From a virus: 58,980 bases of DNA. The notes beneath the pieces were generated by a model. That model saw nothing but the letters and a program-made list of their open reading frames with translations. It was not told where the DNA came from and did not search any database. The stretch spans positions 1-58,980 of IMG/VR virus record IMGVR_UViG_3300020347_000005. One strand, written 5' to 3'. Made by a program: the position numbers and the translations under genes. Position 1 is the first letter of the stretch. Every line of letters begins with the position of its first letter. Below, piece by piece: positions 2,825-41,185 of the stretch.

Positions 2825-3625
2825 CTATGCAACTCTTTTACCGTTGGATTCTAACTCATCGTAACGGTCTTCTATCTTATTTATGATGTCTGCTCTACTT
2901 TGGTCTTCTTTAGTCATTTTAACTACGTGAAACCCCTCTATGTCTTGAAAATTTTCAATTAAAAATTCTAATCCTGAAGTTTGTCCTGATGAACTATCTT
3001 TTTGTTGGGTATCTCCTAAGATAATCAATTTACAATTTTGTCCTATTCTAGACAATACGGTTCTTAAAATAGCATTATTTATATTTTGTGCTTCATCTAA
3101 GATTATAACACAATTATTCAATCCTATACCTCGTATATAAGCAAGTGGTAAAAATTCAATGACTTGTGTTTGTCTTGCCATTTCATAAGTACCTGGATTA
3201 ATTATTTGTTTAAAGTTGAAATCAAACGAAAATAAAAAGGGTGCAATTTTATCTTCCATTGTACCTTTTAGAAATCCAATATCTTCCGATTTATTATCTA
3301 AGGTCTTTACGGATTTACATAAATATATTTTATCGTATGAACCGTTTTTAAATGCTTTTAGTGCTCCTTGAATTGCTGAATAAGTTTTTCCTGTTCCTGG
3401 TTTACCATGTACAATAGTAATAGTAGTATTTTTGTTACTAATAGATTTTACTATTTCACTTTGATTTTTTGTTTTGCATTTAAACTTAGATACTGCAATA
3501 TTGTTTTTAAAGGTTTTGATACCACTATCTTTATTTTCTTTTTCCATAGGTTTTGATTTAGTCTTCGCATTAGAATATTCTAAGAGAATTTCTGTATCTT
3601 CTTCGCTGAAATTCTTTGTTTTCAT
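2825..3625 (-). CDS. phoH: PhoH-like ATPase
   Basis: P-loop ATPase of the PhoH family, common in marine and T4-type phages; the in vivo role is unresolved (an RNA helicase-like or RNA-metabolism function has been proposed). Walker A GKPGTGKT is at residues 74-81, Walker B is in a VIILDEAQN stretch near 170-180, and a downstream ILGDTQQKD sensor-type motif is followed by an arginine-containing QSRADI segment. The first 60 residues are lysine-rich and nonconserved, an N-terminal extension compared with minimal PhoH. A variant late box (GTTAAATA, 3650-3657) lies 24 bases upstream. It converges with the tail tube gene. Confidence 0.88.
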   Translation of the reverse strand: MKTKNFSEEDTEILLEYSNAKTKSKPMEKENKDSGIKTFKNNIAVSKFKCKTKNQSEIVKSISNKNTTITIVHGKPGTGKTYSAIQGALKAFKNGSYDKIYLCKSVKTLDNKSEDIGFLKGTMEDKIAPFLFSFDFNFKQIINPGTYEMARQTQVIEFLPLAYIRGIGLNNCVIILDEAQNINNAILRTVLSRIGQNCKLIILGDTQQKDSSSGQTSGLEFLIENFQDIEGFHVVKMTKEDQSRADIINKIEDRYDELESNGKRVA

Positions 3626-3649
3626 AACATAAAAAATTATCTTCTATGA

Positions 3650-3657
3650 TATTTAAC
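3650..3657 (-). promoter_or_regulatory. Candidate late promoter box (variant) before phoH
   Basis: GTTAAATA on the minus strand, 24 bases before the start codon; one base from the consensus ATTAAATA. Confidence 0.35.
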
Positions 3658-6324
3658 TTACTTGAAAAGACTATCATTTGTAGCAGTAACATCAATACCT
3701 CCACGAAGAACTGTTGTAATTTCTTCAAGTTCTTCCAATAGTGGTGTTAAGTCCACAGGTGTTCCACCTTCTGATGCGACAGTAGGTGCAACATTTGAAT
3801 CGACACTACTTTGCCCTCCTTCTCCAATTGCAATTACTAATTTTTCTATGGCTTGAAGAAATCTTCCTCCTCCTCGGTCTATAGCCTCTGCAAAATTGGC
3901 CATATTATGTGTTAGTGAAACCAACTTATTCAATCTTCCAAATTCTAATCCATTAACAGACTCTTTTATGTCAATAAACAATTTACTAAAATCTTTAGGG
4001 TTTTTTATAGTATTAAGTTTTGAAACACTTGTGGCATAAGTGGTAAACAACTCAATAACATCTTCAGCCCTATCTATACTGTTACTAGATACATCGTCCA
4101 TTTGTTTATCACCAATATGACTAATCAATGTACCAATTGTTGCTGAAAGATTTGCGTCTATTTTTTCCTTCGAAAAATTAGCTTTACCAAAAGTTTCTGC
4201 TGCTTTTGCTAACGATTCTAGTGGCCCTCCTAATCCCCCTAACATCTTGATTCCGTCTTCATAATCAGAACTTCTCCACCAATCTCCACCTTGTTTTCCT
4301 AAATTAGTTATTGGCACTGTTAGTGCTTCAATCATTATTTTTAAGTTATCACCAATGTCTTGTGCAAAGGTAGGATTTAATTTTTCGTATCTTACAACTT
4401 TAGTAGCGTTTTTAGTCCCGGCCTCTCCAAATATAGGAATCTTAAAATCTGCCCAAGCTTGAACTCCAGAAGCAAAATCTGCCAATGCGTTTCCTAATTC
4501 TCCTAATAAATCAACACCTTTTCCGATGTTACTTTGACGCCAATAGCTGGCACCTTTTCCTAATTCTGCTAACACAGAATCCTCACCTACTAATGGGGTA
4601 ACTAAAGCTTTGATAGAAAGACCTATTTGTTGTGGATTAATTTTTTCTCCGGTATCTTTAGTAGTTATTTCACCAGTAACAGGGTCTTGTTCCATTTTTA
4701 CTATTTTCAATTTAGCAAATGCACCTATACCGGCTGCAAAACTACCTAAACTATTTCCAAGTTGTCCAAGTAATTCGATACCCTTAGCAACTGGGTCACC
4801 CCTCCACCATCTATCTGCACCTGCTCCTAATCTTGCTAATATAGCATCTTTATCTATTAATGGCATTACCAACGATTTGATTGTTAAACTTACTTGTTCA
4901 CCTAAATTTGAATCAAACATTTTGTATCCAACTATTTCTGTACCTTCATATATTGGTGCTTTACCGGCTGCAAAATCTCCAAGACCTTCTGCTAGATTAG
5001 TTAACGAATTTCCGATTTTACCTAACAATCTAGCACCTCTTTGTATTTTTCGCATTTCCTTAAAACTTAGGTCTTTGAATACTTTCTTGAAAGATGTAAT
5101 TAGATTTTCAATCGTATCACCGAATAAATCATTTTTATCGGAACTCCATTCAGCATCACTGAAATCTTTTAATGCTGATGCTATTAACGATACTGAAATA
5201 GAAACCGGCAACATTACTGCCGCACCGGCACCAATAAATAATGCACCAAGCCCTGCTGCTGCATATTCAACTCCAATCATTAAAATTGTAGCACCTAATA
5301 CACCAACATCTTCTAGTTTAACGTCTGCCTTAGACCAAACAGCCATTGCAGCTGCAATAATAAGTACAGACACTCCCGCTACAATCATTGCAGCACCACC
5401 CAATGCTATAAAACCTGGGATTGGTCCCGCACCGGCAATTGCCATAGCAATCGCCAATCCTACAATTGTTAATCCTAATAAACCTACGTCTTCAATATCA
5501 ATGTCTGACATTGCAAATATAGAAACCGCAAAAGACAATACCAACACTGCAATTGAGGCAACTAACATTGCCAATGCCCCCATAACTATATCACCTTTTA
5601 TTTTTCCTACAAGGAATAATCCAAAAGCAAGTACTACTATCGAAAGGGTAACAATTCCAAATGCTTTTAACATTTCCATTCCACCTCCCATATAAGCAAG
5701 AGTGAATGCTATTACTAAAGCAAGAATACCGATTGATATTGCCATAAACATCAAAGTTTTAATACCACTTCTGATTCCTTTATCGTTTCTACTTACTAAG
5801 TCAAAAAATAAAAATATTAAGAAAAGTAAAGGTATGGTTATAATTAGACCTATTGCCAACAATGGGCCGGCAAGAGCAATAAATACGGCAAATAATAATA
5901 TTTTCTTACCAATATCAAATATTTTTATGAATGCATCGAATTTTTCAGTATCCATACTATTGATAGTTTCTATTAATAATTTCATTGATTCTGCCAATCC
6001 TCTAATAGCTCCTGATAATATTGATATGTGTTTTGGTGCTCTTTTTTTAAGCAGTTTTGCCATTCCGGCAAATGCGGCAAGTGCTCCACCACCAAATTTT
6101 TTAGGTGACTCTTCTTTCTTTGGTTTTCCTTTCAATCCTTTAAGTAAAATAGAAACCATAGATTCTAACAACTTAGTTTGCTTTGATAATTCTTTACCTA
6201 TTTGGTCAGATAAAAGAGTATTAGTTTTCTTAATACCGGTAAGAATTGCTACGTTTTGATTTGCATTGACATTGGCCAATGTTTCTATATTCTTTAATAT
6301 TCCAGCAACTAAGTTTTCACCCAT
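3658..6324 (-). CDS. Tape-measure-like protein with multi-pass hydrophobic core
   Basis: Largest tail-module product here after the sheath (888 residues). A polar, coiled N-terminus (residues 1-75) is followed by a glycine/alanine-rich linker, then about 8-9 strongly hydrophobic segments between residues 140 and 385. The C-terminal half is built of about four related units containing G-x-x-L-L-G-x-L-G-N-x-L followed by A-x-G, near residues 430-452, 515-537, 602-624 and 691-713, two of them preceded by a tryptophan-rich WWR/YWR motif. Hydrophobic segments and repeats fit a tape measure protein that is released into the membrane at infection. Its place beside the gp26-like hub gene and two unknowns fits the hub/tape module. 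No sequence-level match to T4 gp29 was recognised, so the role is inferred. Confidence 0.6.
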   Translation of the reverse strand: MGENLVAGILKNIETLANVNANQNVAILTGIKKTNTLLSDQIGKELSKQTKLLESMVSILLKGLKGKPKKEESPKKFGGGALAAFAGMAKLLKKRAPKHISILSGAIRGLAESMKLLIETINSMDTEKFDAFIKIFDIGKKILLFAVFIALAGPLLAIGLIITIPLLFLIFLFFDLVSRNDKGIRSGIKTLMFMAISIGILALVIAFTLAYMGGGMEMLKAFGIVTLSIVVLAFGLFLVGKIKGDIVMGALAMLVASIAVLVLSFAVSIFAMSDIDIEDVGLLGLTIVGLAIAMAIAGAGPIPGFIALGGAAMIVAGVSVLIIAAAMAVWSKADVKLEDVGVLGATILMIGVEYAAAGLGALFIGAGAAVMLPVSISVSLIASALKDFSDAEWSSDKNDLFGDTIENLITSFKKVFKDLSFKEMRKIQRGARLLGKIGNSLTNLAEGLGDFAAGKAPIYEGTEIVGYKMFDSNLGEQVSLTIKSLVMPLIDKDAILARLGAGADRWWRGDPVAKGIELLGQLGNSLGSFAAGIGAFAKLKIVKMEQDPVTGEITTKDTGEKINPQQIGLSIKALVTPLVGEDSVLAELGKGASYWRQSNIGKGVDLLGELGNALADFASGVQAWADFKIPIFGEAGTKNATKVVRYEKLNPTFAQDIGDNLKIMIEALTVPITNLGKQGGDWWRSSDYEDGIKMLGGLGGPLESLAKAAETFGKANFSKEKIDANLSATIGTLISHIGDKQMDDVSSNSIDRAEDVIELFTTYATSVSKLNTIKNPKDFSKLFIDIKESVNGLEFGRLNKLVSLTHNMANFAEAIDRGGGRFLQAIEKLVIAIGEGGQSSVDSNVAPTVASEGGTPVDLTPLLEELEEITTVLRGGIDVTATNDSLFK

Positions 6325-13959: not shown

Positions 13960-15149
13960 AATCCTAATTCTTTAAAGATACTTGCACTACTTGAATTATC
14001 GTGTGCTTTCTTGTCATATAGTTTCATAGACATTAAAAGATTTTTATAGTTAAATTGTTTTTGCACTTCGCATTTTTTCTTTTTATAAGTTTCTTCTGAC
14101 CAGTTAAAAATATCATTGTACAAATAAGATGGAATAGTATCTTTGTGTAAAAGTACAAGATTTATATTAACATCTACGTTATTTTGAACATCTTCGATAG
14201 AATACTTGTTTTGAGATTTAAAATTTCTAATAGCAGAACTTGCTAGTTTTCTTTTGAAATCAGTACGAAACAAATCCTCTACATTGAATTTAGAAAAATC
14301 AATTTCTTTCTTTATGTTTTTTATAGTTGCGTCAGCAATCCCTGTGTTGAACCATTGGCCAGCTTTTTTAGCCTTGGGTCCATACTGTCTGGATTCAGTT
14401 ATGATAGGAACTATATTATCAGATATATCACCACCTAAAATCTTTTCAATAACTATTTCAAATGGATTAACTACGGATAACTTAGAACTTGTATTATTAA
14501 CAACAGAACGTAAGCAATCAACAGCATATGTCTTTTGATTTTCTTTTAAGTACAATGCAGTCTCTTTATCAATCCAAAGTTTTCTATTTTGTTTTTGATA
14601 TTGAATAGTAAAAGTATTTTTACTTTTGTCGAATCCTACACATTGTTTTAAATCACCATCACCTGAATAGATTATAGTACTTTTACCTTGACTATTCAAG
14701 TAACTAGAATGCACAAAAATTAAATCATCAGCTTCACATCCTGGAATTGCTTTAAAGTTTAGATTACAACTAATTGCTAATCCTTTAACAAAAGAATCAA
14801 AGACATTAAAAATATTAGAAAAATCAATACTTTTATCTTTTTTTCTGTTACCTTTGTATGACAAATCTTTTTGAATTCCTTTGTAATCTTTAGTAAGATA
14901 CAAATCTTTTCTCCAAGAATTAGAATCATCTATTGTAATTATAACATCATCTATAATCGGACCTAGACTTCTAATGTCCTTTGCATATATTTGAGATAAT
15001 TTTTCTAATAAAAAGTTAGTATCTTTTCTAAGAGTTTCTTCGTTGTTACCTTTCAAGAACATTTCATTATTCTTGGAAAACAATTTCATAACACTTAGTG
15101 TAGAATATAACAGGTAATTTCCATCAATTATTAAAGTAAACTTATTCAT
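13956..15149 (-). CDS. rnh: RNase H / 5'-3' flap exonuclease (T4 Rnh-like)
   Basis: Removes RNA primers from lagging-strand fragments. FEN/PIN-type nuclease motifs are present in order: IIDGNYLLYS at the N-terminus, KDYKGI..KGNRKK, PGCEADDLI (metal-binding acids) and IIYSGDGDLKQ (second acid cluster), then a helix-hairpin region. The start is placed at 15149 (MNKFTLIIDGNY) because this ATG overlaps the gp44 stop (ATGAATAA); the upstream ATG at 15203 would overlap gp44 by 62 bases. At 397 residues it is longer than T4 Rnh (305), mainly through insertions between the motifs and at the C-terminus. A gp44-rnh-gp62 order is unusual; in T4 rnh is elsewhere. Confidence 0.85.
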   Translation of the reverse strand: MNKFTLIIDGNYLLYSTLSVMKLFSKNNEMFLKGNNEETLRKDTNFLLEKLSQIYAKDIRSLGPIIDDVIITIDDSNSWRKDLYLTKDYKGIQKDLSYKGNRKKDKSIDFSNIFNVFDSFVKGLAISCNLNFKAIPGCEADDLIFVHSSYLNSQGKSTIIYSGDGDLKQCVGFDKSKNTFTIQYQKQNRKLWIDKETALYLKENQKTYAVDCLRSVVNNTSSKLSVVNPFEIVIEKILGGDISDNIVPIITESRQYGPKAKKAGQWFNTGIADATIKNIKKEIDFSKFNVEDLFRTDFKRKLASSAIRNFKSQNKYSIEDVQNNVDVNINLVLLHKDTIPSYLYNDIFNWSEETYKKKKCEVQKQFNYKNLLMSMKLYDKKAHDNSSSASIFKELGL

Positions 15150-16095
15150 TAACAATCTTTTTAATTTTTTGTAAACAAGCCGATAAAGTAACAAATTTGT
15201 CAATTACAAAATTTGATTTATAAGTGTAGTCGGCAACCTCTACAATTATATTACCTATTTTATTTGATTCTGCACCTTTACCAATCAGAAAATCAATAAA
15301 TTCTTTTCCTAATGATGCAAATACGTTGTCTTCATTGTTAACGTAGTTCTTATACGCAAATGTATAAAGGTCTATAAAAGATTCACCTGAATTGATTAGG
15401 TGCTCGAATAATTCTTTATTTTCGCCAGTAAAAGTTTTTAAATCTTCTAAGGTAATAGTTTTCTTACCTTCTTCATACATTCCTTGTAAAAAGGTAATTG
15501 TACTTCTTAAATCTGGAAAATGTTTCTTAACAATTGCGCCCATAACTTTAGGTTCAACAGACATCTCTTCCTGTTTGCATATATGATTGAAACGAATTAG
15601 ATATTTTTTCATCAAATCGCGTTCTTCTTCTTTAGGAAAATCAAAGTCAATAACATCGAATCTAGATTGTACATTGTCCGGAATCTTTTGAATGTAGTTA
15701 CAAGTTGCAATAAATCTAGTTGTACTTGCAAATTTTTCAATAACACCTCTCATTGCTTTAAGGTATTGTTCAGAAACACCATCGAACTCATCTAACAATA
15801 CAACTTTCTGTGCTTTCTTTCCGTTCAAGATAGAAATATTAGAACAAAATTCTGTTATTCTAGTTCTTACATTGTCTACACTTGTATCAAGTGAACAGTT
15901 AATTTCTAAACTAACCATATCTTTAGCAATGATTTTTCCTAAACTAGTTTTACCTAATCCTGGACTACCGTGTAATAGAACGTGGTTATTTAATTTACCC
16001 CCTTTGAACTTATTATAAACTCTTTCAGGAATAATTAAATCCTCTAATGTAGATGGTCTATACTTTTCTACCCAAATGTTGTTTTTTATACTCAT
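15142..16095 (-). CDS. 44: Clamp loader large subunit (gp44-like AAA+ ATPase)
   Basis: 317 residues, as T4 gp44 (319). The canonical clamp loader features are visible: WVEKYRPSTLEDLI near the N-terminus, Walker A HGSPGLGKTS (about 44-52), Walker B VVLLDEFDG, sensor I FIATCNY and the arginine finger QSRFDVIDF, followed by a helical C-terminal domain. It assembles with gp62 to load the sliding clamp gp45. First gene of the transcript that continues through rnh, gp62 and the membrane protein. It diverges from the gene at 16142. Confidence 0.93.
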   Translation of the reverse strand: MSIKNNIWVEKYRPSTLEDLIIPERVYNKFKGGKLNNHVLLHGSPGLGKTSLGKIIAKDMVSLEINCSLDTSVDNVRTRITEFCSNISILNGKKAQKVVLLDEFDGVSEQYLKAMRGVIEKFASTTRFIATCNYIQKIPDNVQSRFDVIDFDFPKEEERDLMKKYLIRFNHICKQEEMSVEPKVMGAIVKKHFPDLRSTITFLQGMYEEGKKTITLEDLKTFTGENKELFEHLINSGESFIDLYTFAYKNYVNNEDNVFASLGKEFIDFLIGKGAESNKIGNIIVEVADYTYKSNFVIDKFVTLSACLQKIKKIVNE

Positions 16096-20372: not shown

Positions 20373-21998
20373 TTAAATCATTCTAAATCCTCTTAACTTA
20401 GCAAGTCTTGCTTCCGTAAGTTGACTTTGAGATGGTTTTTCAACATTTTCCTTTTTTTCCTCTTTAATCAAATTTTCTTTTGTGAACTCATTGTTCCAAA
20501 ATGACTTGATTGAAGATTCATTAATGAAATTGAAAAGTGATGCTCTTTTTTTAATTCTCGACTTTTCGCCTTCTTGTAAATCATTCCAAGTTTCTTTATA
20601 CTTAGTAGGCATTAATTGCATCCATAATGGTGCTTCTTGCTTACTTTCGTTTAAATCTACTTTTTGTGATTCGTTTAGAGAGTTGTTGTCAGTTGCTCTT
20701 TGCTCCTTAGCTTCTAAGATATTCTCTAGTTTATTATATATACTTTCTTTAAAATCTTCGATTTTTGATTCGTTGATTTTTTCATTTCTTACTCCTTTTG
20801 TATCAGAATTTTCTAAACTCGATACAGATTCAGTTACGTGGTCTGTCCAATTTTCAATTGCACTAACAGATTCAGTTACATGATTAGACCATTTTTCTAC
20901 ACCAGAAACAGTATCCGTTGCGTGGTCAGACCAATCTTCTAATGCACTAACAGTTTCAGTAACGTGTTGTGACCAAGATTCTACACCATTAACAGTATCA
21001 GTTGCATGTTGTGACCAATCTTCTATTGCACTAACAGTTTCTGTTACGTGATTAGACCAATTAACCATTGATTCAAACTTTGCTTCTAATTCATCATACT
21101 TTTCTTGTAAAGATGAATCCGAACCTTCTTTAACAGAATCAAATTCTTCTTTTACATGGTCAGCCCATTTTTCAATTGCTGATAATTTTTGATTTACAGA
21201 TTCAAATTTTTGTTTGAATTCAGCATTACTGTATTCTTCTACGATACCATCGTTTTGTTCAATAATACTTTCTTGAATTTCTTTCATGTCAGCAATTTCG
21301 GATTTAACACCTTCTATTGCCTCTTTTGTGAAATCTGTGTATTTGTTGAATTCGCTTTCTTTTAGATAATCCATTGTTTCTACGTGCTTATTTTTATTAT
21401 TTAACTCTTTAATATCTTGTTTGATTTGTTTACCTATTTCATAGATTGCAAAATCACTAAATACATCTAATTCTGTATTTTCGTTTAGCATTCCGAATGA
21501 TTCATTTACACTACTTAATCTTGCATTTGCAAAACCTGGCGTGTCAACTAAATCGTAGGTAAATAATTTATGAATCTTTACTGATTTATCTTCTGTAACA
21601 GTACCGGCAGCTCTTGATGATATATGTAAAGGAATTCCAGCATCAACAATTGCTTTTGCTTGTTTACCAGCATCAGTATCCAACAATTTGATTTTTCCCA
21701 TCACCCTGTTGTTTTTTTCGTCCATCCAAATTTCTTCAATTTTATGAGATACATTTTTCAATGTAGTTTCAAATTGTTTTGGGTGGTCTAATTCACCAAC
21801 AGCTGTTCCACTTTCTACAACTTTTTTTAGTGCTTCGAAATGCGGTTGAAATTCTTTTCTAGTATAAACTCTACCGTTTCTATTTTCAGAATCAAATTCT
21901 GTAAATACACCTTCTAAGACATATTTATCATTATCAGATGCATTAGCGATAGGCTTTACTGAAAATTTCGATTTTTCTATTAATAAGTAATCTTTCAT
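20373..21998 (-). CDS. 21: Prohead core protease (gp21-like) fused to scaffold-like coiled coil
   Basis: 541 residues; T4 gp21 has 212, so this is a fusion. Residues 1-165 are the protease: GELDHP (H72), ISSRAAG (S127/128) and YDLVDTPGF match the herpes-type serine protease of T4-like proheads. A likely self-cleavage site, GMLNE/N, follows at 169-174. The remainder is helical and charged like the scaffold gp22, with six exact-phase 14-residue repeats (W-S-x-H-V/A-T-x-x-V-x-x-x-E; tryptophans at 314, 328, 342, 356, 370, 384). Further LNE/INE sites lie in the C-terminal 110 residues. No separate gp22 gene was seen between portal and capsid genes, so this gene probably supplies both protease and scaffold. 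Late box 31 bases upstream. Confidence 0.85.
   Translation of the reverse strand: MKDYLLIEKSKFSVKPIANASDNDKYVLEGVFTEFDSENRNGRVYTRKEFQPHFEALKKVVESGTAVGELDHPKQFETTLKNVSHKIEEIWMDEKNNRVMGKIKLLDTDAGKQAKAIVDAGIPLHISSRAAGTVTEDKSVKIHKLFTYDLVDTPGFANARLSSVNESFGMLNENTELDVFSDFAIYEIGKQIKQDIKELNNKNKHVETMDYLKESEFNKYTDFTKEAIEGVKSEIADMKEIQESIIEQNDGIVEEYSNAEFKQKFESVNQKLSAIEKWADHVKEEFDSVKEGSDSSLQEKYDELEAKFESMVNWSNHVTETVSAIEDWSQHATDTVNGVESWSQHVTETVSALEDWSDHATDTVSGVEKWSNHVTESVSAIENWTDHVTESVSSLENSDTKGVRNEKINESKIEDFKESIYNKLENILEAKEQRATDNNSLNESQKVDLNESKQEAPLWMQLMPTKYKETWNDLQEGEKSRIKKRASLFNFINESSIKSFWNNEFTKENLIKEEKKENVEKPSQSQLTEARLAKLRGFRMI
20811..21059 (-). repeat. Tandem 42-bp repeats in scaffold part of gp21 gene
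   Basis: Six consecutive units encoding the 14-residue W-x-x-H repeat. Units alternate between two flavours (WSNHVTETVSAIE-type and WSDHATDTVSGVE-type), suggesting duplication of a 28-residue pair. Confidence 0.85.
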
Positions 21999-33146: not shown

Positions 33147-33728
33147 TTAATCTAATGAACCGAATTTTCCTTTGCCCATATCACTTGCAAAATCTCTTGA
33201 ACCTTGCGAACTTAATTTAATATAGTAAGAATCTGTTGCTTTTCCACCTCTACCAAAATAAGACTTCAATTGAAAAGTATCAATTGCTTTTGCATCTTTA
33301 CCTTTAAGAGTTTCTTTTAATGTTTTTTCAACCTCTTTTCTCCAATTTTTATCCGTAGGTTCAATTTTAATACTTTGACTTGCAAATGTCTTTAAATCAA
33401 CAGGAACACTTATTGATGAAATTGTATCCGGTAATTTCTTAATTGCTTTCAATAAATCTTTTAAAGATTTACCTTCGGATTCAAATCCTTCGTTAATACT
33501 TTCTTTAAGTTCAACCATATTCATACCAACAACTTGTTCTGGTTTAATAATACCACCATCAAATTCAATCGGTTCAATGATTATTCTTTTAGTACCGTTG
33601 TTAACATTAACAACTTTATATTCCATATCTTTTTCTGATGGGTCATCTAAGTATTCATCTTTGATAGTAACAATACTACCTTCCTTAAATTTCTTTCCTT
33701 CGTTTAAAAATTCGTTTAATGCTTTCAT
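33147..33728 (-). CDS. Putative internal head protein with capsid-targeting N-terminus (193 aa)
   Basis: Begins MKALNEFLNE/GKKFK. Residues 11-72 look like an SH3-like beta domain (GSIVTIKDEYLDDP, EYKVVNVNNGTKRIIIEPIEF). A second candidate site, ESINE/GFESEG, follows at 78-80, and the remaining 113 residues form a separate alpha/beta module ending in KGKFGSLD. Two mature products are therefore possible. Its 30-base tag is identical to those at 8214-8243 and 34303-34332. Confidence 0.72.
   Translation of the reverse strand: MKALNEFLNEGKKFKEGSIVTIKDEYLDDPSEKDMEYKVVNVNNGTKRIIIEPIEFDGGIIKPEQVVGMNMVELKESINEGFESEGKSLKDLLKAIKKLPDTISSISVPVDLKTFASQSIKIEPTDKNWRKEVEKTLKETLKGKDAKAIDTFQLKSYFGRGGKATDSYYIKLSSQGSRDFASDMGKGKFGSLD
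33699..33728 (-). repeat. Capsid-targeting-tag DNA repeat, family A copy 2
   Basis: Thirty bases identical to 8214-8243 and 34303-34332. Confidence 0.85.
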
Positions 33729-33731
33729 ATC

Positions 33732-34034
33732 TTATAACTTATTTACTATTTGTTCTTCGAATTCACTTCTACTTATAGAAAAAATCAATCCACCTCTTAC
33801 ATTAACATCATCATATTTAAAAGTAAATCCTGTTTGATTTTTGATATGATATTCTATTTCATCTATTTGATTTTCTTTGTCTGCGTTGACCCTATCAAAA
33901 TCTTTAGATGTTTTAGGTAAATATTGAAATACAATATCATTTCTACCACTAGTATCCATAGTAATTAGATAAGTAACACCACCATATACAAATGTTTTCA
34001 TCTTTTCGTTTAAAAAATTATTTAATTGTTTCAT
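33732..34034 (-). CDS. Putative internal head protein with capsid-targeting N-terminus (100 aa)
   Basis: Begins MKQLNNFLNE/KMKTF. The mature part of 90 residues is beta-rich (FVYGGVTYLITMDTSG; TFKYDDVNVRGGLIFSIS) with one central helix. No family recognised. Third gene of the cassette; three bases from the next gene. Its 30-base tag is identical to that of the gene at 34329-34634, although the proteins are otherwise unrelated. Confidence 0.72.
   Translation of the reverse strand: MKQLNNFLNEKMKTFVYGGVTYLITMDTSGRNDIVFQYLPKTSKDFDRVNADKENQIDEIEYHIKNQTGFTFKYDDVNVRGGLIFSISRSEFEEQIVNKL
34005..34034 (-). repeat. Capsid-targeting-tag DNA repeat, family B copy 1
   Basis: Thirty bases identical to 34605-34634. 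Confidence 0.85.
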
Positions 34035-34035
34035 A

Positions 34036-34332
34036 TTAATATCCTAATTTTGATTTATCGAATTTGGGGTCAATTTTGTAGTTAGAAAAGTTTGATATAT
34101 CTTTTTTTCTACCGAACAATACATAATCTACAAAATCTTTTGCTGTTACTAGTTGTTGTAAAGCATCATCAATATCCGATGGTATAACATCACCAAATAA
34201 ATCTTTTCTTAGTTCTTTATATTGTTTGAAAGTCTTAAAAGATTCTCCTTTTGATAATTTGTGTAGTTTAATCAAATCTTCTTTAGTAAATTTTTCTTTT
34301 CTTTCGTTTAAAAATTCGTTTAATGCTTTCAT
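34036..34332 (-). CDS. Putative internal head protein with capsid-targeting N-terminus (98 aa)
   Basis: Begins MKALNEFLNE/RKEKF. The rest is helical and basic at first (FTKEDLIKLHKLSKGESFKTFKQYKELRKDLFG) and then has a LQQLVTAKDFVDYVLFGRKK helix. Family not recognised. Overlaps the upstream gene by four bases; a TATTTAC box variant is 4 bases before its ATG. Confidence 0.7.
   Translation of the reverse strand: MKALNEFLNERKEKFTKEDLIKLHKLSKGESFKTFKQYKELRKDLFGDVIPSDIDDALQQLVTAKDFVDYVLFGRKKDISNFSNYKIDPKFDKSKLGY
34303..34332 (-). repeat. Capsid-targeting-tag DNA repeat, family A copy 3
   Basis: Thirty bases identical to 8214-8243 and 33699-33728. Confidence 0.85.
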
Positions 34333-34634
34333 ATACTATTTACGATTTGATTAGCGATTGTTTTCATATCATCTCCAGAAATATAATTTCCAGTAGCATA
34401 ACCACCAGTATTAACATAACTTTGCAATAGATTTACAATCCATTGAACATCGGTAGATGATAAATATTCACCAATTTCATTAGCAATTTTTTGAATGTCG
34501 GTTTCTGGAATATAAAGTCCTTTTTCTGTTTTAAGAGTTGAATATGCATTAGTAGAGAAAGAATCTAATATCATTCTAACCCTTTTTTTATCTTTATTTT
34601 TACCTTCGTTTAAAAAATTATTTAATTGTTTCAT
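34329..34634 (-). CDS. Putative internal head protein with capsid-targeting N-terminus (101 aa)
   Basis: Begins MKQLNNFLNE/GKNKD. Mature part of 91 residues is helical, with two similar helical motifs (DIQKIANEIGEYLSS and DMKTIANQIVNSI), each preceded by a strand-like turn, which suggests an internal duplication: Y-x-x-x-x-x-D-x-x-x-IAN-x-I. Family not recognised. First gene of the five-gene cassette; a late-type box lies 4 bases before the ATG. Confidence 0.72.
   Translation of the reverse strand: MKQLNNFLNEGKNKDKKRVRMILDSFSTNAYSTLKTEKGLYIPETDIQKIANEIGEYLSSTDVQWIVNLLQSYVNTGGYATGNYISGDDMKTIANQIVNSI
34605..34634 (-). repeat. Capsid-targeting-tag DNA repeat, family B copy 2
   Basis: Thirty bases identical to 34005-34034. 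Confidence 0.85.
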
Positions 34635-34717: not shown

Positions 34718-35932
34718 TTATTCGTCTAATTCAGAAGTATCAATTAAATCTTCAATTTCATCATCTGTTTCTTGTGAACTAAATTCAAAGTCCTTTTTGA
34801 TGAGTTCATCGAAACGGTCCTCTAAGGGTTGCATTACTCTTTCACTAAACAAATCTCTAGTATCAATTGCTTCACCTAAATGTTCAACAATATATTTTCT
34901 CGCTGTTTCTTTAGGTGCAAAATACATAACCTCTTCACTATCAGTAGGTGTAAATATTTTTACCTTTTCCTTTGCAGCTCCTGTAAGTTTATTGTATTCT
35001 TTTTCTGTTAGTAAGTTTCCTTTTGCAATACCTACATTATCCCATCCTAAATAATCTTGAACGCCCATATAACGATTAAATGGTCTATCAAAGAAAATAG
35101 GGAACTTGATTGTTTTTGGTTGAGCAAATCTATTCTTTCCAGTTTTAGCTGTTACAATAACACCCGTTTGTCTTTTCTCATCTTTCTTATCATCTTTAAG
35201 TTTTGCTTTAGATAGATACAAGGTGATACTTGGTGAATAAACAACTCCTCCTCCACCACCTTGAACAACCGGGTCTCCATAACCACCAATGTTTACCATT
35301 GTATGATTTGTAAATATCATTGGAATACCTAATGAATTCAAATCAGAAGTAATGATTCTAAAGAAAGAACGAATTTGTTTTGCTCTAGTCATATCTGCAG
35401 CACTGTTTCCTGTTCTTGCATCTTCGATTTCTTTTGATGATGCAACCATTCCTATTGAATCAAGAACTAATAAAAACTTAGGAATTTTTTGACCTTTCAA
35501 TTTTAATGCTGTCAAGTTCTTAATGAAAATAGCATACATCGTTTTTAACTTTTCGATTTCTGAAACAGGTTCATGTCTAAAGTTTTTCAAATCAATTCCA
35601 AAATTTATACAACTTTGAGGGTCAACTGCCCCTTCGGTATCGTAGTAAATTGGTGTGTATCCGGCTAATTGTGCATTCCTTACAGCATTAAGTGTTAAGA
35701 ATGTTTTACCAGACCCAGATTCTCCAACTAAAGAGGATTGTTTAGTACTTGGAAATCCTTTTTTAATAGAACCACTTAGGGCCGCATTTAAAATCCAATT
35801 ACCAGAATCAATCCAAACATTGTTTTTATAAATTTCAGATTGACCAAAATTACTACTACCAAAAGGATTAATTTCCCCAAGTTCTTTGAAAATATCATCA
35901 ACTGAACTATGTTTTTTACTTGTTTTTGCCAT
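34718..35932 (-). CDS. uvsX: RecA-like recombinase UvsX
   Basis: 404 residues (T4 UvsX has 391). Walker A GESGSGKT at 70-77, 'PIYYDTEGAVDP' after it, Walker B 'FLLVLDSIGM', and 'MIFTNHTMVNIGGYGDPVVQGGGGGVVYSPS' as the DNA-binding loop region. It catalyses strand exchange on gp32-coated ssDNA with UvsY. The acidic C-terminus (ETDDEIEDLIDTSELDE) is typical. Last gene of the polymerase operon, 13 bases after gp43B, and followed by a terminator. Confidence 0.95.
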   Translation of the reverse strand: MAKTSKKHSSVDDIFKELGEINPFGSSNFGQSEIYKNNVWIDSGNWILNAALSGSIKKGFPSTKQSSLVGESGSGKTFLTLNAVRNAQLAGYTPIYYDTEGAVDPQSCINFGIDLKNFRHEPVSEIEKLKTMYAIFIKNLTALKLKGQKIPKFLLVLDSIGMVASSKEIEDARTGNSAADMTRAKQIRSFFRIITSDLNSLGIPMIFTNHTMVNIGGYGDPVVQGGGGGVVYSPSITLYLSKAKLKDDKKDEKRQTGVIVTAKTGKNRFAQPKTIKFPIFFDRPFNRYMGVQDYLGWDNVGIAKGNLLTEKEYNKLTGAAKEKVKIFTPTDSEEVMYFAPKETARKYIVEHLGEAIDTRDLFSERVMQPLEDRFDELIKKDFEFSSQETDDEIEDLIDTSELDE

Positions 35933-35945
35933 ATTATAAATTATT

Positions 35946-37166
35946 TTAAAATAAACGTTTTTTAATTTTCAACGAACCTGACAATGCATTTATACCAGGC
36001 ATCGACTGAATAATATTGTTCAATGGATTAATAACTGTTTTTTCGAACATTAAATCAATATCAATTTCGGGTGCAAATTCTTTAGGATGCGCTCCTCTAT
36101 TGAAAGAAAATACGTTATATGCTTCTTTGTGTGCTTTTGCATAATACCATTTAACCTTATCTCCAGTTCTAAGTCTTTCGTACTTATTTTCAAAAGATGG
36201 ATTGTTGTTAATAAACATATTGTGAATTGCAGCACCTCTAACATGCGTACTACAACCACTTGCATAATTTAAACTTTCTTTATCGTCTAAAATATATTTT
36301 TCGTAATCACCTATTCCGGTTGTAATACAAATATCTTCTAAGTCAGCAATTGCAAATCTTTTTTTCAATTTCAATAATTCAATAGTAATATCTCTTTGTG
36401 TGAAATTTTTACCATTGTCAAATATCCATTGAACTAATTTAGACAATTCCGGTCTACAAAAAGGCGGTGTTGTTAAACGAATAATTTCAAGTCCTGTCGT
36501 TTTTGTATAAGTACCTGGTTCGTAGAACTTACCATCTTGCCAGACAATATCTTGTGTGTATTTTTTCTTTTTAACCCAAATACCAGATTTACTTATAGTT
36601 TCTAATTCAAAATCTAAATAATTTTCAGTGTTGTAAGATTGTGCATATTTATCAAATACCTTTTTTAGATAATTTTTTAACCTAAATTCGTTTATTGTTA
36701 ATATAAAATCAGCAGCAGAACCCGTCCAATTTATTTTTTCTGCAGCCTCTTCAAAGGTAACATAAGCCGAATCGGTATCCATATAAACAACAGTAGGTTT
36801 TACACAAGGAACTGGTTCTAAGTTTACATCAGGACATATATCTTTTAGTTTTTTCAAAAGAGCAATATCTTTGTGAAACATTTTATGAAAGTAAGTATCT
36901 AATGCTTTTTCAGAATATCTAATTGCATCTTGACCTTGCATAGTAATTGTTTCAGCAAGTGTTTTATTATAGAAATAAAAATACTTACTGGCCATCGCAC
37001 CGTATATAGAATTCAATACTAATTTATTGGATTGTTCTAGTGTTGAATATATATTTGCTTCATCTTGTAATTGAGATAGAACCGAATCGGTTTCAGATGG
37101 AGATAGAGAACTCCAATCGAAATTCTCTATCTCTTCTGTTGACATATTTTGAATAGTTGCTGTCAT
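35946..37166 (-). CDS. 43B: DNA polymerase C-terminal part (gp43B: fingers P helix, palm motif C, thumb)
   Basis: 406 residues. After an unrelated leader (1-45) it contains the family B motif B, 'SNKLVLNSIYGAMASKYFYF' (K48 to about 65), motif C YMDTDSAY at 128-135, and the thumb with KKKKYTQDIVWQDG. The N-terminal exonuclease and motif A are absent; they are encoded separately at 37980-39488. The break corresponds to the tip of the fingers. Neither fragment shows intein motifs. Both chains must associate to make an active enzyme. The start overlaps the clamp gene stop (TAATG), so clamp and gp43B are coupled. The C-terminus, SLKIKKRLF, may be a clamp-binding tail. Confidence 0.9.
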   Translation of the reverse strand: MTATIQNMSTEEIENFDWSSLSPSETDSVLSQLQDEANIYSTLEQSNKLVLNSIYGAMASKYFYFYNKTLAETITMQGQDAIRYSEKALDTYFHKMFHKDIALLKKLKDICPDVNLEPVPCVKPTVVYMDTDSAYVTFEEAAEKINWTGSAADFILTINEFRLKNYLKKVFDKYAQSYNTENYLDFELETISKSGIWVKKKKYTQDIVWQDGKFYEPGTYTKTTGLEIIRLTTPPFCRPELSKLVQWIFDNGKNFTQRDITIELLKLKKRFAIADLEDICITTGIGDYEKYILDDKESLNYASGCSTHVRGAAIHNMFINNNPSFENKYERLRTGDKVKWYYAKAHKEAYNVFSFNRGAHPKEFAPEIDIDLMFEKTVINPLNNIIQSMPGINALSGSLKIKKRLF

Positions 37167-37948
37167 TAAAGTTCAACTTCTTCATGTAACGTAATAACTA
37201 CTTCCATAGTTTTGTCAATTGTTTCAAAGATAATCTTATCTTCATCTAAGATTGGATAAACATTATATGAATTTGCATCAACAGCTCTGAATAATTTCTT
37301 ATCTAACTTATAAGATTTTTCTCCACCTTGATTAAGTCCTTCGAATTCTTCATCTATATCAATAGAATATGAACCTTCTGAACAAACCTTTACTTGACCG
37401 TTGACTTTAAATTCTAATTCATCACTTGAATCAAAATCCATAAATTTCTTAACTTGCAAGATTTCGTTTGCAGTCATTTTAAATTTACAGTCAGAAGATG
37501 ATGTATCTTTTACTTCTGCAATCTTTTCTTCTGGAACATTTGCAAATTCAAAAAGAGTTGGGTCTGCAGCATCTAATGTTAATGAAATTTTAGGACTGGA
37601 AACTTTCATAGTTTCACCAAAATATTCTCCATCTAATTCAGAATACACAATTTCAACTTTAATTTCACCACCACTTAGAAAACTAAATGCTTTCTTTACT
37701 TTGTTACCATCATAGAAACAAAGTTTAATTGGTGATGATAATCCATCTAAATTTGATTCACCACATAATTCTCCTATTTGCATTCTCATACTTTTGATAA
37801 GTGTTCCAGATGAATTATGTGCATCTGTTCTGATTCCTTCTTGGTCTATTTTGAAATAGATAGTTGAGGCTTCATCTAAAGGAATTAACGAATCTATAAA
37901 GTTATTGAACTTTACTAAATCTACGGTTTTTAATATTACTTTCTTCAT
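37166..37948 (-). CDS. 45: Sliding clamp (gp45-like)
   Basis: 260 residues (T4 gp45 has 228). Two-domain beta-rich pattern with 'VKFNNFIDSLIPLDEASTIYF', 'SMRMQIGELCG', 'FSFLSGGEIKVEIVY' and a second half with 'FKMTANEILQVKKFMDF' and 'YPILDEDKIIFETIDKTMEVVITL'. It lies between the two halves of the polymerase gene, 31 bases after gp43A and overlapping gp43B. As in T4 it would act as processivity factor and, with gp55, as activator of late transcription. Assigned from fold pattern and context. Confidence 0.72.
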   Translation of the reverse strand: MKKVILKTVDLVKFNNFIDSLIPLDEASTIYFKIDQEGIRTDAHNSSGTLIKSMRMQIGELCGESNLDGLSSPIKLCFYDGNKVKKAFSFLSGGEIKVEIVYSELDGEYFGETMKVSSPKISLTLDAADPTLFEFANVPEEKIAEVKDTSSSDCKFKMTANEILQVKKFMDFDSSDELEFKVNGQVKVCSEGSYSIDIDEEFEGLNQGGEKSYKLDKKLFRAVDANSYNVYPILDEDKIIFETIDKTMEVVITLHEEVEL

Positions 37949-37979
37949 GCTAAATGTATTTGTTTATAGTTAAATGTAA

Positions 37980-39488
37980 TTATTTACGGTTTTGTTTTAT
38001 TTCATGTGCTATTTTTGCACATAATTTTGAACGATATTGATTTTTCTTTCTATCGGTATACAATTCATCATATACTCCTTTCAATGTTGATTCTCCTTTT
38101 TTGAATACACAGCCAGATACTGAAATGATTTCATCGTTCTTAGGTCTTTCTATTTTAGAAGTTATTGGTTTGTATTTACTGTAATATTTTAGGTTATTTG
38201 TTTCCTTTCTATCAAAGTTTTCAAAACCTAATTCTAAGAAACGAGAAATTGATGGATACAGTGAACTAAAATCATAACAAGCTGTTAATTCATGCAGTCC
38301 AGCAATAGGTGATTTTACATAAGCTCCTTCGTACCATTCTTTTTCTCTTTGTGATATATCAATATTTGGTAAAACTTTTCCATTTTCTATATATGCCTTA
38401 GACATATATCCTTCGGTAACATTTACAGCAGAATCGGCCTTGTCTATTGGATTACAAGAACCATTTCCTTGTGCCAAGATTGCAGAAAACGGTTGTCTTC
38501 TTTCGTGAATCAATAGAACAAGAATAGTATCGACTGCGTTATAAAGACAATATGTATCATAATCTTTGTCGTACATCTCTTTTAATACAGCACCATTCAT
38601 TGCTGGATAATTTCCATACTTCAACTTTTTTACCTTTAATACTTGCGAAGAAATAAAATCTAAACTTTTAGATTCCTTTATTTTTATACTTCTATCGAAC
38701 GCATCAAAGTAATACATATAATCAATAACTGAAAAGTGGTGGGGAACTTTACCTACATCTTTTTTGTTGTTTAATTTGTTGGTAGGAGAAATAGATTTAT
38801 AATCAACTTTAAGGTTATCCATTCTTTTAGTCAAGAAAGGCCAATCAAATCCGTTGTTATTCATCCAATTTTGTCTGAATGTATTTATAAAGTTCCATCC
38901 TGTTATAACGTGAAATTTTGAACATATCTTTACAAAAGATTCTAAAAGTTTTACTTCATCCGGAATATGAATATATTTTAGTATTATTTTCAAATCAGTT
39001 ACTTTAGAAAAGTAATCGGATAAGAATTCGTTCATTTTCTTTTGCTTATCGTAATCAAAATTTTCTTTTTCTCCTAATATAACAACTTGAATTTTATTAT
39101 TGTCATCTTTCCAACAAACAGTTATTGCAGTTATTTTTTCTTTTGCTACGGTTACATCCGGGAATCCATCGTGAATATCTGTTTCAATATCGCAAAATAA
39201 AATCTTAGGCATATTGAATTCATACAATATCTTTTTATATTCGGGATGTGTATTAATCCATTCCCAAATACTTTTTTTATCAATTGTATCGTTATCTTTG
39301 TAAGAAATTCTTACTACTCTTTTATCATCCCAAGATTTATATTTGATGTCGGCATTAGGACCTTCATAATATCTCCATTTCCAGAAGTCTCTTTTTTTAA
39401 CAGACAAAATTTGTCTATTTCTATCAGAATCAATATAAGAAATTTTGACAGTATCCGAATATCTGTTTTGTTCTATGTCTAATATCAT
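37980..39488 (-). CDS. 43A: DNA polymerase N-terminal part (gp43A: exonuclease and palm motif A)
   Basis: 502 residues. Family B order: Exo I FCDIETD near residue 98, Exo II GWN...GFDWPFL near 200-220, Exo III YNAVDT near 318, then palm motif A DFSSLYPS at 406-413, and the first fingers helix with YTDRKKNQYRSK, ending at the stop 16 residues later. Exo II is unusual: 13 residues separate GWN from GFD, where T4 has two. Motifs B and C are on a separate gene (35946-37166). The stop is clean, with no sign of a recent frameshift, and the sliding clamp gene follows. Overlaps the small gene upstream by four bases. Confidence 0.92.
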   Translation of the reverse strand: MILDIEQNRYSDTVKISYIDSDRNRQILSVKKRDFWKWRYYEGPNADIKYKSWDDKRVVRISYKDNDTIDKKSIWEWINTHPEYKKILYEFNMPKILFCDIETDIHDGFPDVTVAKEKITAITVCWKDDNNKIQVVILGEKENFDYDKQKKMNEFLSDYFSKVTDLKIILKYIHIPDEVKLLESFVKICSKFHVITGWNFINTFRQNWMNNNGFDWPFLTKRMDNLKVDYKSISPTNKLNNKKDVGKVPHHFSVIDYMYYFDAFDRSIKIKESKSLDFISSQVLKVKKLKYGNYPAMNGAVLKEMYDKDYDTYCLYNAVDTILVLLIHERRQPFSAILAQGNGSCNPIDKADSAVNVTEGYMSKAYIENGKVLPNIDISQREKEWYEGAYVKSPIAGLHELTACYDFSSLYPSISRFLELGFENFDRKETNNLKYYSKYKPITSKIERPKNDEIISVSGCVFKKGESTLKGVYDELYTDRKKNQYRSKLCAKIAHEIKQNRK

Positions 39489-39736
39489 TTAGCATTTTCT
39501 TTTTCTTGTTCTTTAGTTTCGGTTTCGCTCAAAATACCGGCAGAATCACATAATGCAATTATAAATTCTACTGTTTCTTCGTGCAATTCGATAGTAACTT
39601 TTCCATTCTTTTTAAATCCTACTTTATTTTTTTGTGCATGTATCTCATTTTTAAGTGTTCCGAAAACATCAATAAACGAATTCACATCGTCATTGGTTAA
39701 TTGTAAATCTAAAATATTACTAATTCTTAGTTCCAT
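39485..39736 (-). CDS. Small hypothetical protein preceding polymerase
   Basis: 83 residues, not recognised. Predicted as a small alpha/beta protein (ELRISNILDLQLTNDDVNSF; KVTIELHEETVEFIIALCDSAG) with an acidic tail. Translationally coupled to gp43A through a four-base overlap, so it is probably the first gene of the replication operon gp43A-45-43B-uvsX. The upstream gap is shared with a divergent glycosyltransferase. Confidence 0.6.
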   Translation of the reverse strand: MELRISNILDLQLTNDDVNSFIDVFGTLKNEIHAQKNKVGFKKNGKVTIELHEETVEFIIALCDSAGILSETETKEQEKENAK

Positions 39737-40768: not shown

Positions 40769-41185
40769 TTATTTATAAACATATGTTTTTATTTTTCTAC
40801 CATAGTTAATTTCTAAACTTTTAATAGTTTCTTTAGACATATCAACAGTTTCTAAAAATTTCCAATTACCTATTCTTTTCGTAGTGTTATAATTAACAAA
40901 CATTTCTCTAGTTCCTTCTGGTTTTTTACTAAATTTGTTATTTGCCGAACCATAACCAAAAACTATTTTATATCCAAGAGGTTCTCCATCAATTTTTTTC
41001 ATTTCGTCATCGTCTTGCCAAACTTCTGCGTGCATATCTTCCCAATCAGTCCACACTTCTTGGATAGTTTCTTTTTTAAAAATACCAGATGCAAATTTTG
41101 AATTTTTTACATCTACTGTTCCAGAAAATAGTACATAGTTTCCTTCATATCTTATTTCGTTCAAAAATTCGTTTAATGATTTCAT
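40769..41185 (-). CDS. Putative internal head protein with capsid-targeting N-terminus (138 aa)
   Basis: Begins MKSLNEFLNE/IRYEG. Mature part of 128 residues is beta-rich (NYVLFSGTVDVKNSKFASGIF; YKIVFGYGSANNKF) with several tryptophans (TDWEDMHAEVW). Family not recognised. Follows the 1006-residue gene after 17 bases, and has its own late-type box 4 bases before the ATG. Confidence 0.72.
   Translation of the reverse strand: MKSLNEFLNEIRYEGNYVLFSGTVDVKNSKFASGIFKKETIQEVWTDWEDMHAEVWQDDDEMKKIDGEPLGYKIVFGYGSANNKFSKKPEGTREMFVNYNTTKRIGNWKFLETVDMSKETIKSLEINYGRKIKTYVYK

What the first reader, a model, noticed from the sequence alone, without database searches (positions are those of the whole stretch)
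35946..39488. DNA polymerase split in the fingers, with the sliding clamp gene between the halves
gp43A (37980-39488) holds exonuclease motifs and palm motif A (DFSSLYPS) and stops just after the first fingers helix. gp43B (35946-37166) starts with a new 45-residue leader and holds motif B (KLVLNSIYG), motif C (YMDTDSAY) and thumb. The break is at the fingertip insertion of T4 gp43. The clamp gene sits between and overlaps gp43B. No intein or intron motif is visible. Split gp43 genes are known in some Aeromonas T4-type phages, but I do not know of one interrupted by the clamp gene.
Basis: partly seen in the sequence, partly recalled or inferred. Interest (0 to 1): 0.85.

Follow-up and report, generated by a model that had tools for sequence, protein, structure and literature searches.

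The report
Two-piece phage polymerase flanking clamp gene
A T4-type phage makes its replicative DNA polymerase as two separate chains cut at the tip of the fingers, with the sliding-clamp gene between the two halves; this turns out to be an old, lineage-wide layout in a clade of large phages rather than a one-off, and at least four isolated phages already deposited in GenBank have it.

Summary
Confirmed. The window is a fragment of a T4-type phage. It encodes gp43A (502 aa: exonuclease, palm motif A, first fingers helix), then a PCNA/gp45-fold sliding clamp, then gp43B (406 aa: second fingers helix with motif B, motif C, thumb). The cut maps to T4 residues ~502/503, the fingertip.

One detail is wrong: the 'new 45-residue leader' of gp43B is mostly the ordinary second half of the fingers; only about 14 residues lack an RB69 counterpart.

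All catalytic residues are present, and the dNTP site must be built from both chains. No other PolB, PolA or PolIII gene was found in the window or in large related records, and no intein or intron lies at the A/B break.

The arrangement is not unique. In 85 related metagenomic loci every gp43B is separate, and 83 have the clamp just upstream. gp43A lies upstream on the same strand, 25 nt to 23 kb away. Tenacibaculum PTm1 and pT24, Chryseobacterium MA9V-1 and phage PAU have the same order, undescribed in papers I could search. The split goes back to near the base of this clade, and the same fingertip was cut independently in Aeromonas 44RR and Vibrio henriette. Close relatives have a second cut, bridged by a split intein.

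The parts
37980..39488 (-). gp43A: N-terminal, exonuclease, palm motif A, first fingers helix (502 aa)
   Evidence: ORF; PHROG 2062 E=5.5e-54, PHROG 262 positions 104-495; RB69 gp43 5-503
39183..39191 (-). exonuclease motif I D-I-E (residues 100-102)
   Evidence: invariant in A2; D215 and D320 also invariant
38250..38273 (-). palm motif A DFSSLYPS (D406)
   Evidence: D406 invariant in A2
38049..38051 (-). R480, equivalent of RB69 R482 (dNTP phosphate contact, from known RB69 structures), on the first fingers helix
   Evidence: invariant in A2; aligned to RB69
37166..37948 (-). sliding clamp, gp45/PCNA fold (260 aa), between the polymerase halves
   Evidence: AlphaFold pLDDT 81; Foldseek PCNA E=7.4e-12; profile hits beside gp43B in 83 of 85 loci
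37164..37168 (-). TAATG: clamp stop overlaps gp43B start by one base
   Evidence: sequence; same overlap in L003, L004, L010, L028, L076
35946..37166 (-). gp43B: second half of fingers, motif B, motif C, thumb (406 aa)
   Evidence: ORF; PHROG 1918 E=4.2e-66; RB69 529-897
37032..37166 (-). gp43B N-terminal 45 residues: mostly the second half of the fingers, not a novel leader
   Evidence: alignment to T4, 44RR and others; predicted continuous helix 23-56
36999..37025 (-). motif B KLVLNSIYG (K48, N52, Y55 = RB69 K560, N564, Y567)
   Evidence: invariant in 24 sequences A5
36762..36785 (-). motif C YMDTDSAY (D130, D132); a split intein interrupts relatives just before this site
   Evidence: invariant in A5; PF14890 on both sides in L008, on the one side tested in L007, L012, L016, L018
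35949..35975 (-). conserved C-terminal peptide SLKIKKRLF, candidate clamp-binding tail (compare T4 SLDFLFG)
   Evidence: L399 and F406 invariant in 24 sequences; tails listed; binding itself is inferred
34718..35932 (-). UvsX recombinase, directly downstream
   Evidence: PHROG 97 E=1.1e-57
39485..39736 (-). 83-aa ORF overlapping the gp43A start by 4 nt, conserved with it in relatives
15142..16095 (-). clamp loader ATPase (gp44 type), rest of the same replisome
   Evidence: PHROG 168 E=4.1e-66

Best explanation
gp43A and gp43B are the two chains of one replicative B-family DNA polymerase of the T4 gp43 type. They associate non-covalently through the palm and the base of the fingers to form a complete active site, and work with the clamp encoded between them. 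The break is at the surface-exposed fingertip. Catalytic D406 (A) and D130/D132 (B) then meet in the palm, and the dNTP pocket combines R480 of A with K48/N52/Y55 of B. gp43B carries the C-terminal tail that probably binds the clamp, and its gene is probably translationally coupled to the clamp gene. The split arose near the base of a large clade of T4-type big phages and has been kept since. Shown here: gene content, break position, completeness of motifs, purifying selection, conserved order, absence of another polymerase (in what could be searched) or of an intein/intron at the break. Inferred: assembly, activity, clamp binding, translational coupling.
For: Both halves align end to end with RB69/T4 gp43 with no loss of motifs. 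The break falls at T4 ~502-535 in every split lineage. dN/dS is ~0.1 for both halves. gp43B is separate in 85/85 loci and the clamp is just upstream in 83/85. gp43A is upstream on the same strand in all 21 records where it lies 12-23 kb off. No PolA or PolIII alpha in 10 records; the window otherwise has a T4-type replisome: clamp loader, DnaB-type helicase, primase, SSB, UvsX, gp46/47. gp43B alone gives a poor model (pTM 0.47, palm and motif B disordered, thumb good), as expected of a half-fold. The 43A/43B of Aeromonas phage 25 co-purify and have polymerase activity (PMC2988022). The tree supports one clade (100/100).
Against: No complex was modelled or measured. The poor gp43B model may reflect a shallow alignment. 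The window is a 59-kb fragment, so a second polymerase elsewhere in this genome cannot be excluded directly. A phage-specific mini PolIII has been reported for related jumbo phages (PMC7824862), and the Pfam model might miss it. The clamp-binding tail is a resemblance only, and is weak or absent in MA9V-1, PTm1, PAU and pT24.
Confidence: 0.88

Rival explanations
1. The halves are joined after transcription or translation: RNA splicing removes the clamp segment, or a split intein ligates A to B.
For: Split inteins do occur in this very gene family: relatives L007, L008, L012, L016 and PTm1 carry one just before motif C.
Against: gp43A ends and gp43B starts at the fingertip with no extra domain. 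No Intein_splicing hit on either window half, no group I/II intron in Rfam. The interval holds a conserved clamp gene with proper stop and start codons, and in relatives it is up to 23 kb long.
Confidence: 0.03
2. The halves are decayed or repurposed: gp43A is a free exonuclease or regulator, gp43B a relic, and the host or another polymerase replicates the phage.
For: Separate genes can drift apart (Lak and LR7565xx phages have them far apart on opposite strands).
Against: All polymerase and exonuclease residues are invariant, dN/dS ~0.1 for both, no PolA/PolIII gene in related records.
Confidence: 0.05
3. The clamp gene (or a mobile element bringing it) inserted into an intact gp43 gene in this phage and split it recently.
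For: The clamp sits exactly at the break, only 31 nt from gp43A and overlapping gp43B.
Against: The split is shared by 39 rows of the tree down to ~25-30% identity, and the distance from 43A to the clamp varies from 25 nt to 23 kb while clamp+43B stays together. No homing endonuclease is present between the halves in the window.
Confidence: 0.07
4. Assembly or sequencing artefact splitting one gene.
For: Metagenomic contig.
Against: Same layout in contigs from several independent samples at 50-100% identity and in isolate genomes.
Confidence: 0.01

Closest known systems
Aeromonas phages 44RR and 25, gp43A/gp43B (Petrov, Ratnayaka, Karam 2010; summarised in PMC2988022)
   Same: T4-type gp43 cut in two at the fingertip (44RR maps to T4 ~510/511); separate start and stop; 43A/43B of phage 25 co-purify and are active
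   Different: Only a short untranslated spacer or a homing endonuclease between the halves; clamp gene upstream with 44/62/regA; independent origin on the tree (AU p=0.004 against one clade of all split rows)
Tenacibaculum phages PTm1 and pT24, Chryseobacterium phage MA9V-1, phage PAU (GenBank records)
   Same: 43A, then clamp, then 43B on one strand; same break site; same clade
   Different: Extra ORFs between the parts in some; PTm1 has a further split intein in 43B; clamp not annotated as such, and the layout not described in the papers I could read
Vibrio phage henriette 12B8 (same kind as families PHROG 2062 and 1918)
   Same: Two-gene gp43 with the same break
   Different: A 208-aa ORF lies between the halves; gp45 clamp several genes downstream; groups with the T4 side of the tree
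Pseudomonas phage MIJ3 split PolB with split intein (PMC6892783) and 'fractured genes' (Dassa 2009)
   Same: Fragmented phage PolB
   Different: There the break is bridged by a split intein; here the A/B break is not
Methanothermobacter thermautotrophicus PolB in two polypeptides (PMC7776575)
   Same: B-family polymerase working as two chains; cut also in the fingers region (from memory)
   Different: Archaeal cellular enzyme; no clamp gene between, as far as I know

Membership tests
T4-type gp43 (PolB) replicative polymerase | exonuclease motifs I-III and polymerase motifs A, B, C present and in order | tested here: met
   invariant D100, E102, D215, D320, D406, R480 in 43A; K48, N52, Y55, D130, D132 in 43B
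T4-type gp43 (PolB) replicative polymerase | whole-length homology to T4/RB69 gp43 | tested here: met
   RB69 5-503 and 529-897, E=2e-83 and 2e-45
T4-type gp43 (PolB) replicative polymerase | single polypeptide | tested here: not met
   two ORFs 37980-39488 and 35946-37166
Split gp43 (43A/43B) as in Aeromonas phages | two cistrons, break in the fingers, each with its own start and stop | tested here: met
   break T4 502/503 against 510/511 in 44RR
Split gp43 (43A/43B) as in Aeromonas phages | the two products form an active enzyme | not testable with these tools
   shown for phage 25 only (PMC2988022)
Sliding clamp of the gp45/PCNA superfamily | PCNA-type fold | tested here: met
   pLDDT 81 model; leading Foldseek hits are PCNA and 9-1-1 clamps, TM ~0.7
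Sliding clamp of the gp45/PCNA superfamily | trimeric ring on DNA that stimulates the polymerase | not testable with these tools
   a gp44-type clamp loader is encoded in the window
Split-intein 'fractured gene' | intein halves at the break | tested here: not met
   no PF14890 hit on window 43A or 43B; met in relatives at a different site

The most novel reading that the evidence does not exclude
The clamp is a structural partner of the split enzyme, not only a processivity factor: clamp and gp43B are made from overlapping cistrons, assemble as they are translated, and the clamp holds gp43B in shape until gp43A docks. The ancient split is then maintained because assembly of the holoenzyme is ordered or regulated by it, for example by limiting gp43A.
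Probability: 0.12. Interest if true: 0.78.

Novelty: new variant of a known kind. Interest (0 to 1): 0.52.

Why it matters
A replicative polymerase cut in two through its dNTP-binding domain has been kept by a large, widespread phage clade over deep divergence, with the clamp gene linked to one half. It suggests that an essential polymerase can live permanently as a heterodimer. It also points to the fingertip as a repeatedly used break point, gives natural cut sites for engineered split B-family polymerases, and offers a testable system for ordered assembly of a polymerase holoenzyme. Practically, such genes are easily missed: half-genes are annotated separately and the clamp is usually left as 'hypothetical protein'.

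Tried and rejected
Profile search for the clamp in Pfam, PHROGs and PDB sequences gave nothing; the fold model was needed. The 43A alignment was too diverse to seed a collection scan. Rfam found no intron. Hypothesis of a novel leader domain on gp43B: rejected by alignment. Hypothesis of one origin for all split gp43 genes including 44RR and henriette: rejected (AU p=0.004). One origin within the big clade, leaving out the fused Flavobacterium phage MaF61: not rejected (p=0.36), though MaF61 sits on a very long branch and could also be a re-fusion. The fold model of gp43B alone was poor (pTM 0.47), though its best matches are all T4/RB69 gp43, so no atomic claim is made from it.

Full report
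OBSERVATION. gp43A overlaps an upstream 83-aa ORF by 4 nt, its stop is 31 nt before the clamp ATG, and the clamp stop shares one base with the gp43B ATG (TAATG). PHROGs and Pfam call both outer genes B-family DNA polymerase. PHROGs already has separate families for such halves (2062 for the N half, 1918 for the C half).

BREAK SITE. A profile of eight gp43A proteins aligns with RB69 gp43 residues 5-503, and one of gp43B aligns from its residue 15 with RB69 529-897. In a joint alignment with T4, gp43A ends at T4 ~502 and gp43B starts at ~503. This is the tip of the fingers, between the two long helices.

COMPLETENESS. Exonuclease D100, E102, D215, D320, palm D406 and fingers R480 are invariant in eight gp43A proteins. 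K48, N52, Y55, D130 and D132 are invariant in 24 gp43B proteins. From established RB69 biochemistry (own knowledge) R482, K560, N564 and Y567 contact the incoming nucleotide or the nascent pair; their equivalents lie on different chains here, so neither chain can form the pocket alone. dN/dS against close relatives is 0.07-0.12 for both halves.

CLAMP. No sequence profile recognises it. Its AlphaFold model has mean pLDDT 81 and pTM 0.80, and the leading Foldseek hits are PCNA or 9-1-1 clamps with TM ~0.7. It is a sliding clamp of the gp45/PCNA kind. The window also encodes a gp44-type clamp loader, DnaB-type helicase, primase, ssDNA-binding protein, UvsX, gp46/47 and T4-type portal, protease, capsid and sheath genes.

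IS THERE ANOTHER POLYMERASE? The window has only these two PolB pieces. In 24 related records, of up to 434 kb, 23 have exactly one gp43A-type match and one has none. In ten records, the window included, no PolA or PolIII alpha was found. The window is a fragment, so this is indirect for this phage itself.

JOINING? There is no intein domain on either window half and no Rfam intron in the window. The contrast with relatives is telling. In L007, L008 and L009 (about 83% identical in gp43B), and in L012, L013, LR756500 and PTm1, gp43B is cut again just before motif C. Pfam finds intein domains on both sides in L008, and on the one side tested in L007, L012, LR756500 and PTm1. There a split intein can mend the second cut; the A/B cut shows no such device.

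SURVEY. In 85 metagenomic gp43B loci from two scans every gp43B is a separate ORF (or intein-split), and in 83 a clamp gene lies 0-2.2 kb upstream on the same strand, most often directly adjacent. gp43A directly precedes the clamp (25-45 nt) in the window's own clade, lies 3-6 kb upstream in a second group, and 12-23 kb upstream in a third; in all 21 far cases it is upstream on the same strand. Isolates show the same order: PTm1 (51 nt), pT24 (0.3 kb), MA9V-1 (1.2 kb), PAU (1.5 kb). In Lak and the LR7565xx megaphages the halves have moved far apart. The scan lists the best 80 matches to a split-derived profile, so these fractions describe this clade, not all T4-type phages.

TREE. A tree of 48 joined gp43 sequences puts 39 split rows plus the fused Flavobacterium MaF61 in one clade (100/100), against T4, cyanophage, pelagiphage and other phages that are mostly fused. 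The 39 split rows as one clade without MaF61 are not rejected (AU p=0.36). All split rows as one clade, including 44RR and henriette, are rejected (AU p=0.004). So the same fingertip was cut more than once, and once anciently in this clade. The simplest ancestral layout is 43A, clamp, 43B on one strand, with later insertions separating 43A; the reverse is possible.

MECHANISM. Most likely the two chains associate non-covalently into a normal gp43-like polymerase with proofreading, and gp43B docks on the clamp through its C-terminal tail. L399 and F406 of the tail are invariant in 24 proteins and the tails resemble T4 SLDFLFG. The Aeromonas phage 25 pair is known to co-purify and polymerise (PMC2988022). 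The overlap of clamp and gp43B cistrons in many members suggests coupled translation of the clamp and its partner; this is inference.

KNOWN OR NEW. Split gp43 is known (Petrov et al. 2010 via PMC2988022), split-intein PolB is known (PMC6892783), and two-chain archaeal PolB is known (PMC7776575). The clamp between the halves is present in deposited genomes but I found no paper that describes it; only open-access text was searched.

Noticed in passing
L008:8001-9774 (also L007:6924-8828, L009:3704-5472): Close relatives of the window have gp43B cut again just before motif C by a split intein (PF14890 on both ORFs of L008), giving a three-gene polymerase in which only one of two cuts can be mended by protein splicing.
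   Followed up: partly
L012/L013, L016, L018 (PTm1), L136 (Lak-A2): gp43B is interrupted near motif C in Lak-type, LR756500 and PTm1 phages as well, so this split-intein site is widely used in the clade; PTm1 has a VSR-type endonuclease between the halves.
   Followed up: partly
L134 (LR756502) 3487-4908: gp43B has an ~80-residue in-frame insert just after the motif C region that Pfam does not recognise as an intein.
   Followed up: no
L017 (Flavobacterium phage MaF61) 5410-8394: Only fused gp43 (994 aa) in the clade, with a clamp gene 2.6 kb upstream; either it branched before the split or it was re-fused.
   Followed up: partly
window 33147-34634 and 40769-41185: Several unrelated small proteins start with the same short motif (MKALNEFLNE, MKQLNNFLNE, MKSLNEFLNE). 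It recalls the capsid-targeting peptide of T4 internal proteins, ending in an L-x-E site like that cut by the gp21 protease (from memory), whose gene is at 20373-21998.
   Followed up: no
L007:8846-10668 and L009:5487-7676: UvsX-like sequence also appears as two ORFs in these relatives, and helicase-like sequence too; several replication genes in this group may be fragmented.
   Followed up: no
L007:6741-6923 and L009:3533-3703: A near-identical ~170-nt spacer with a long inverted repeat (AGAAAGGAACT...AGTTCCTTTCTTT) sits between clamp and gp43B in two of the intein-bearing relatives but not in the window.
   Followed up: no
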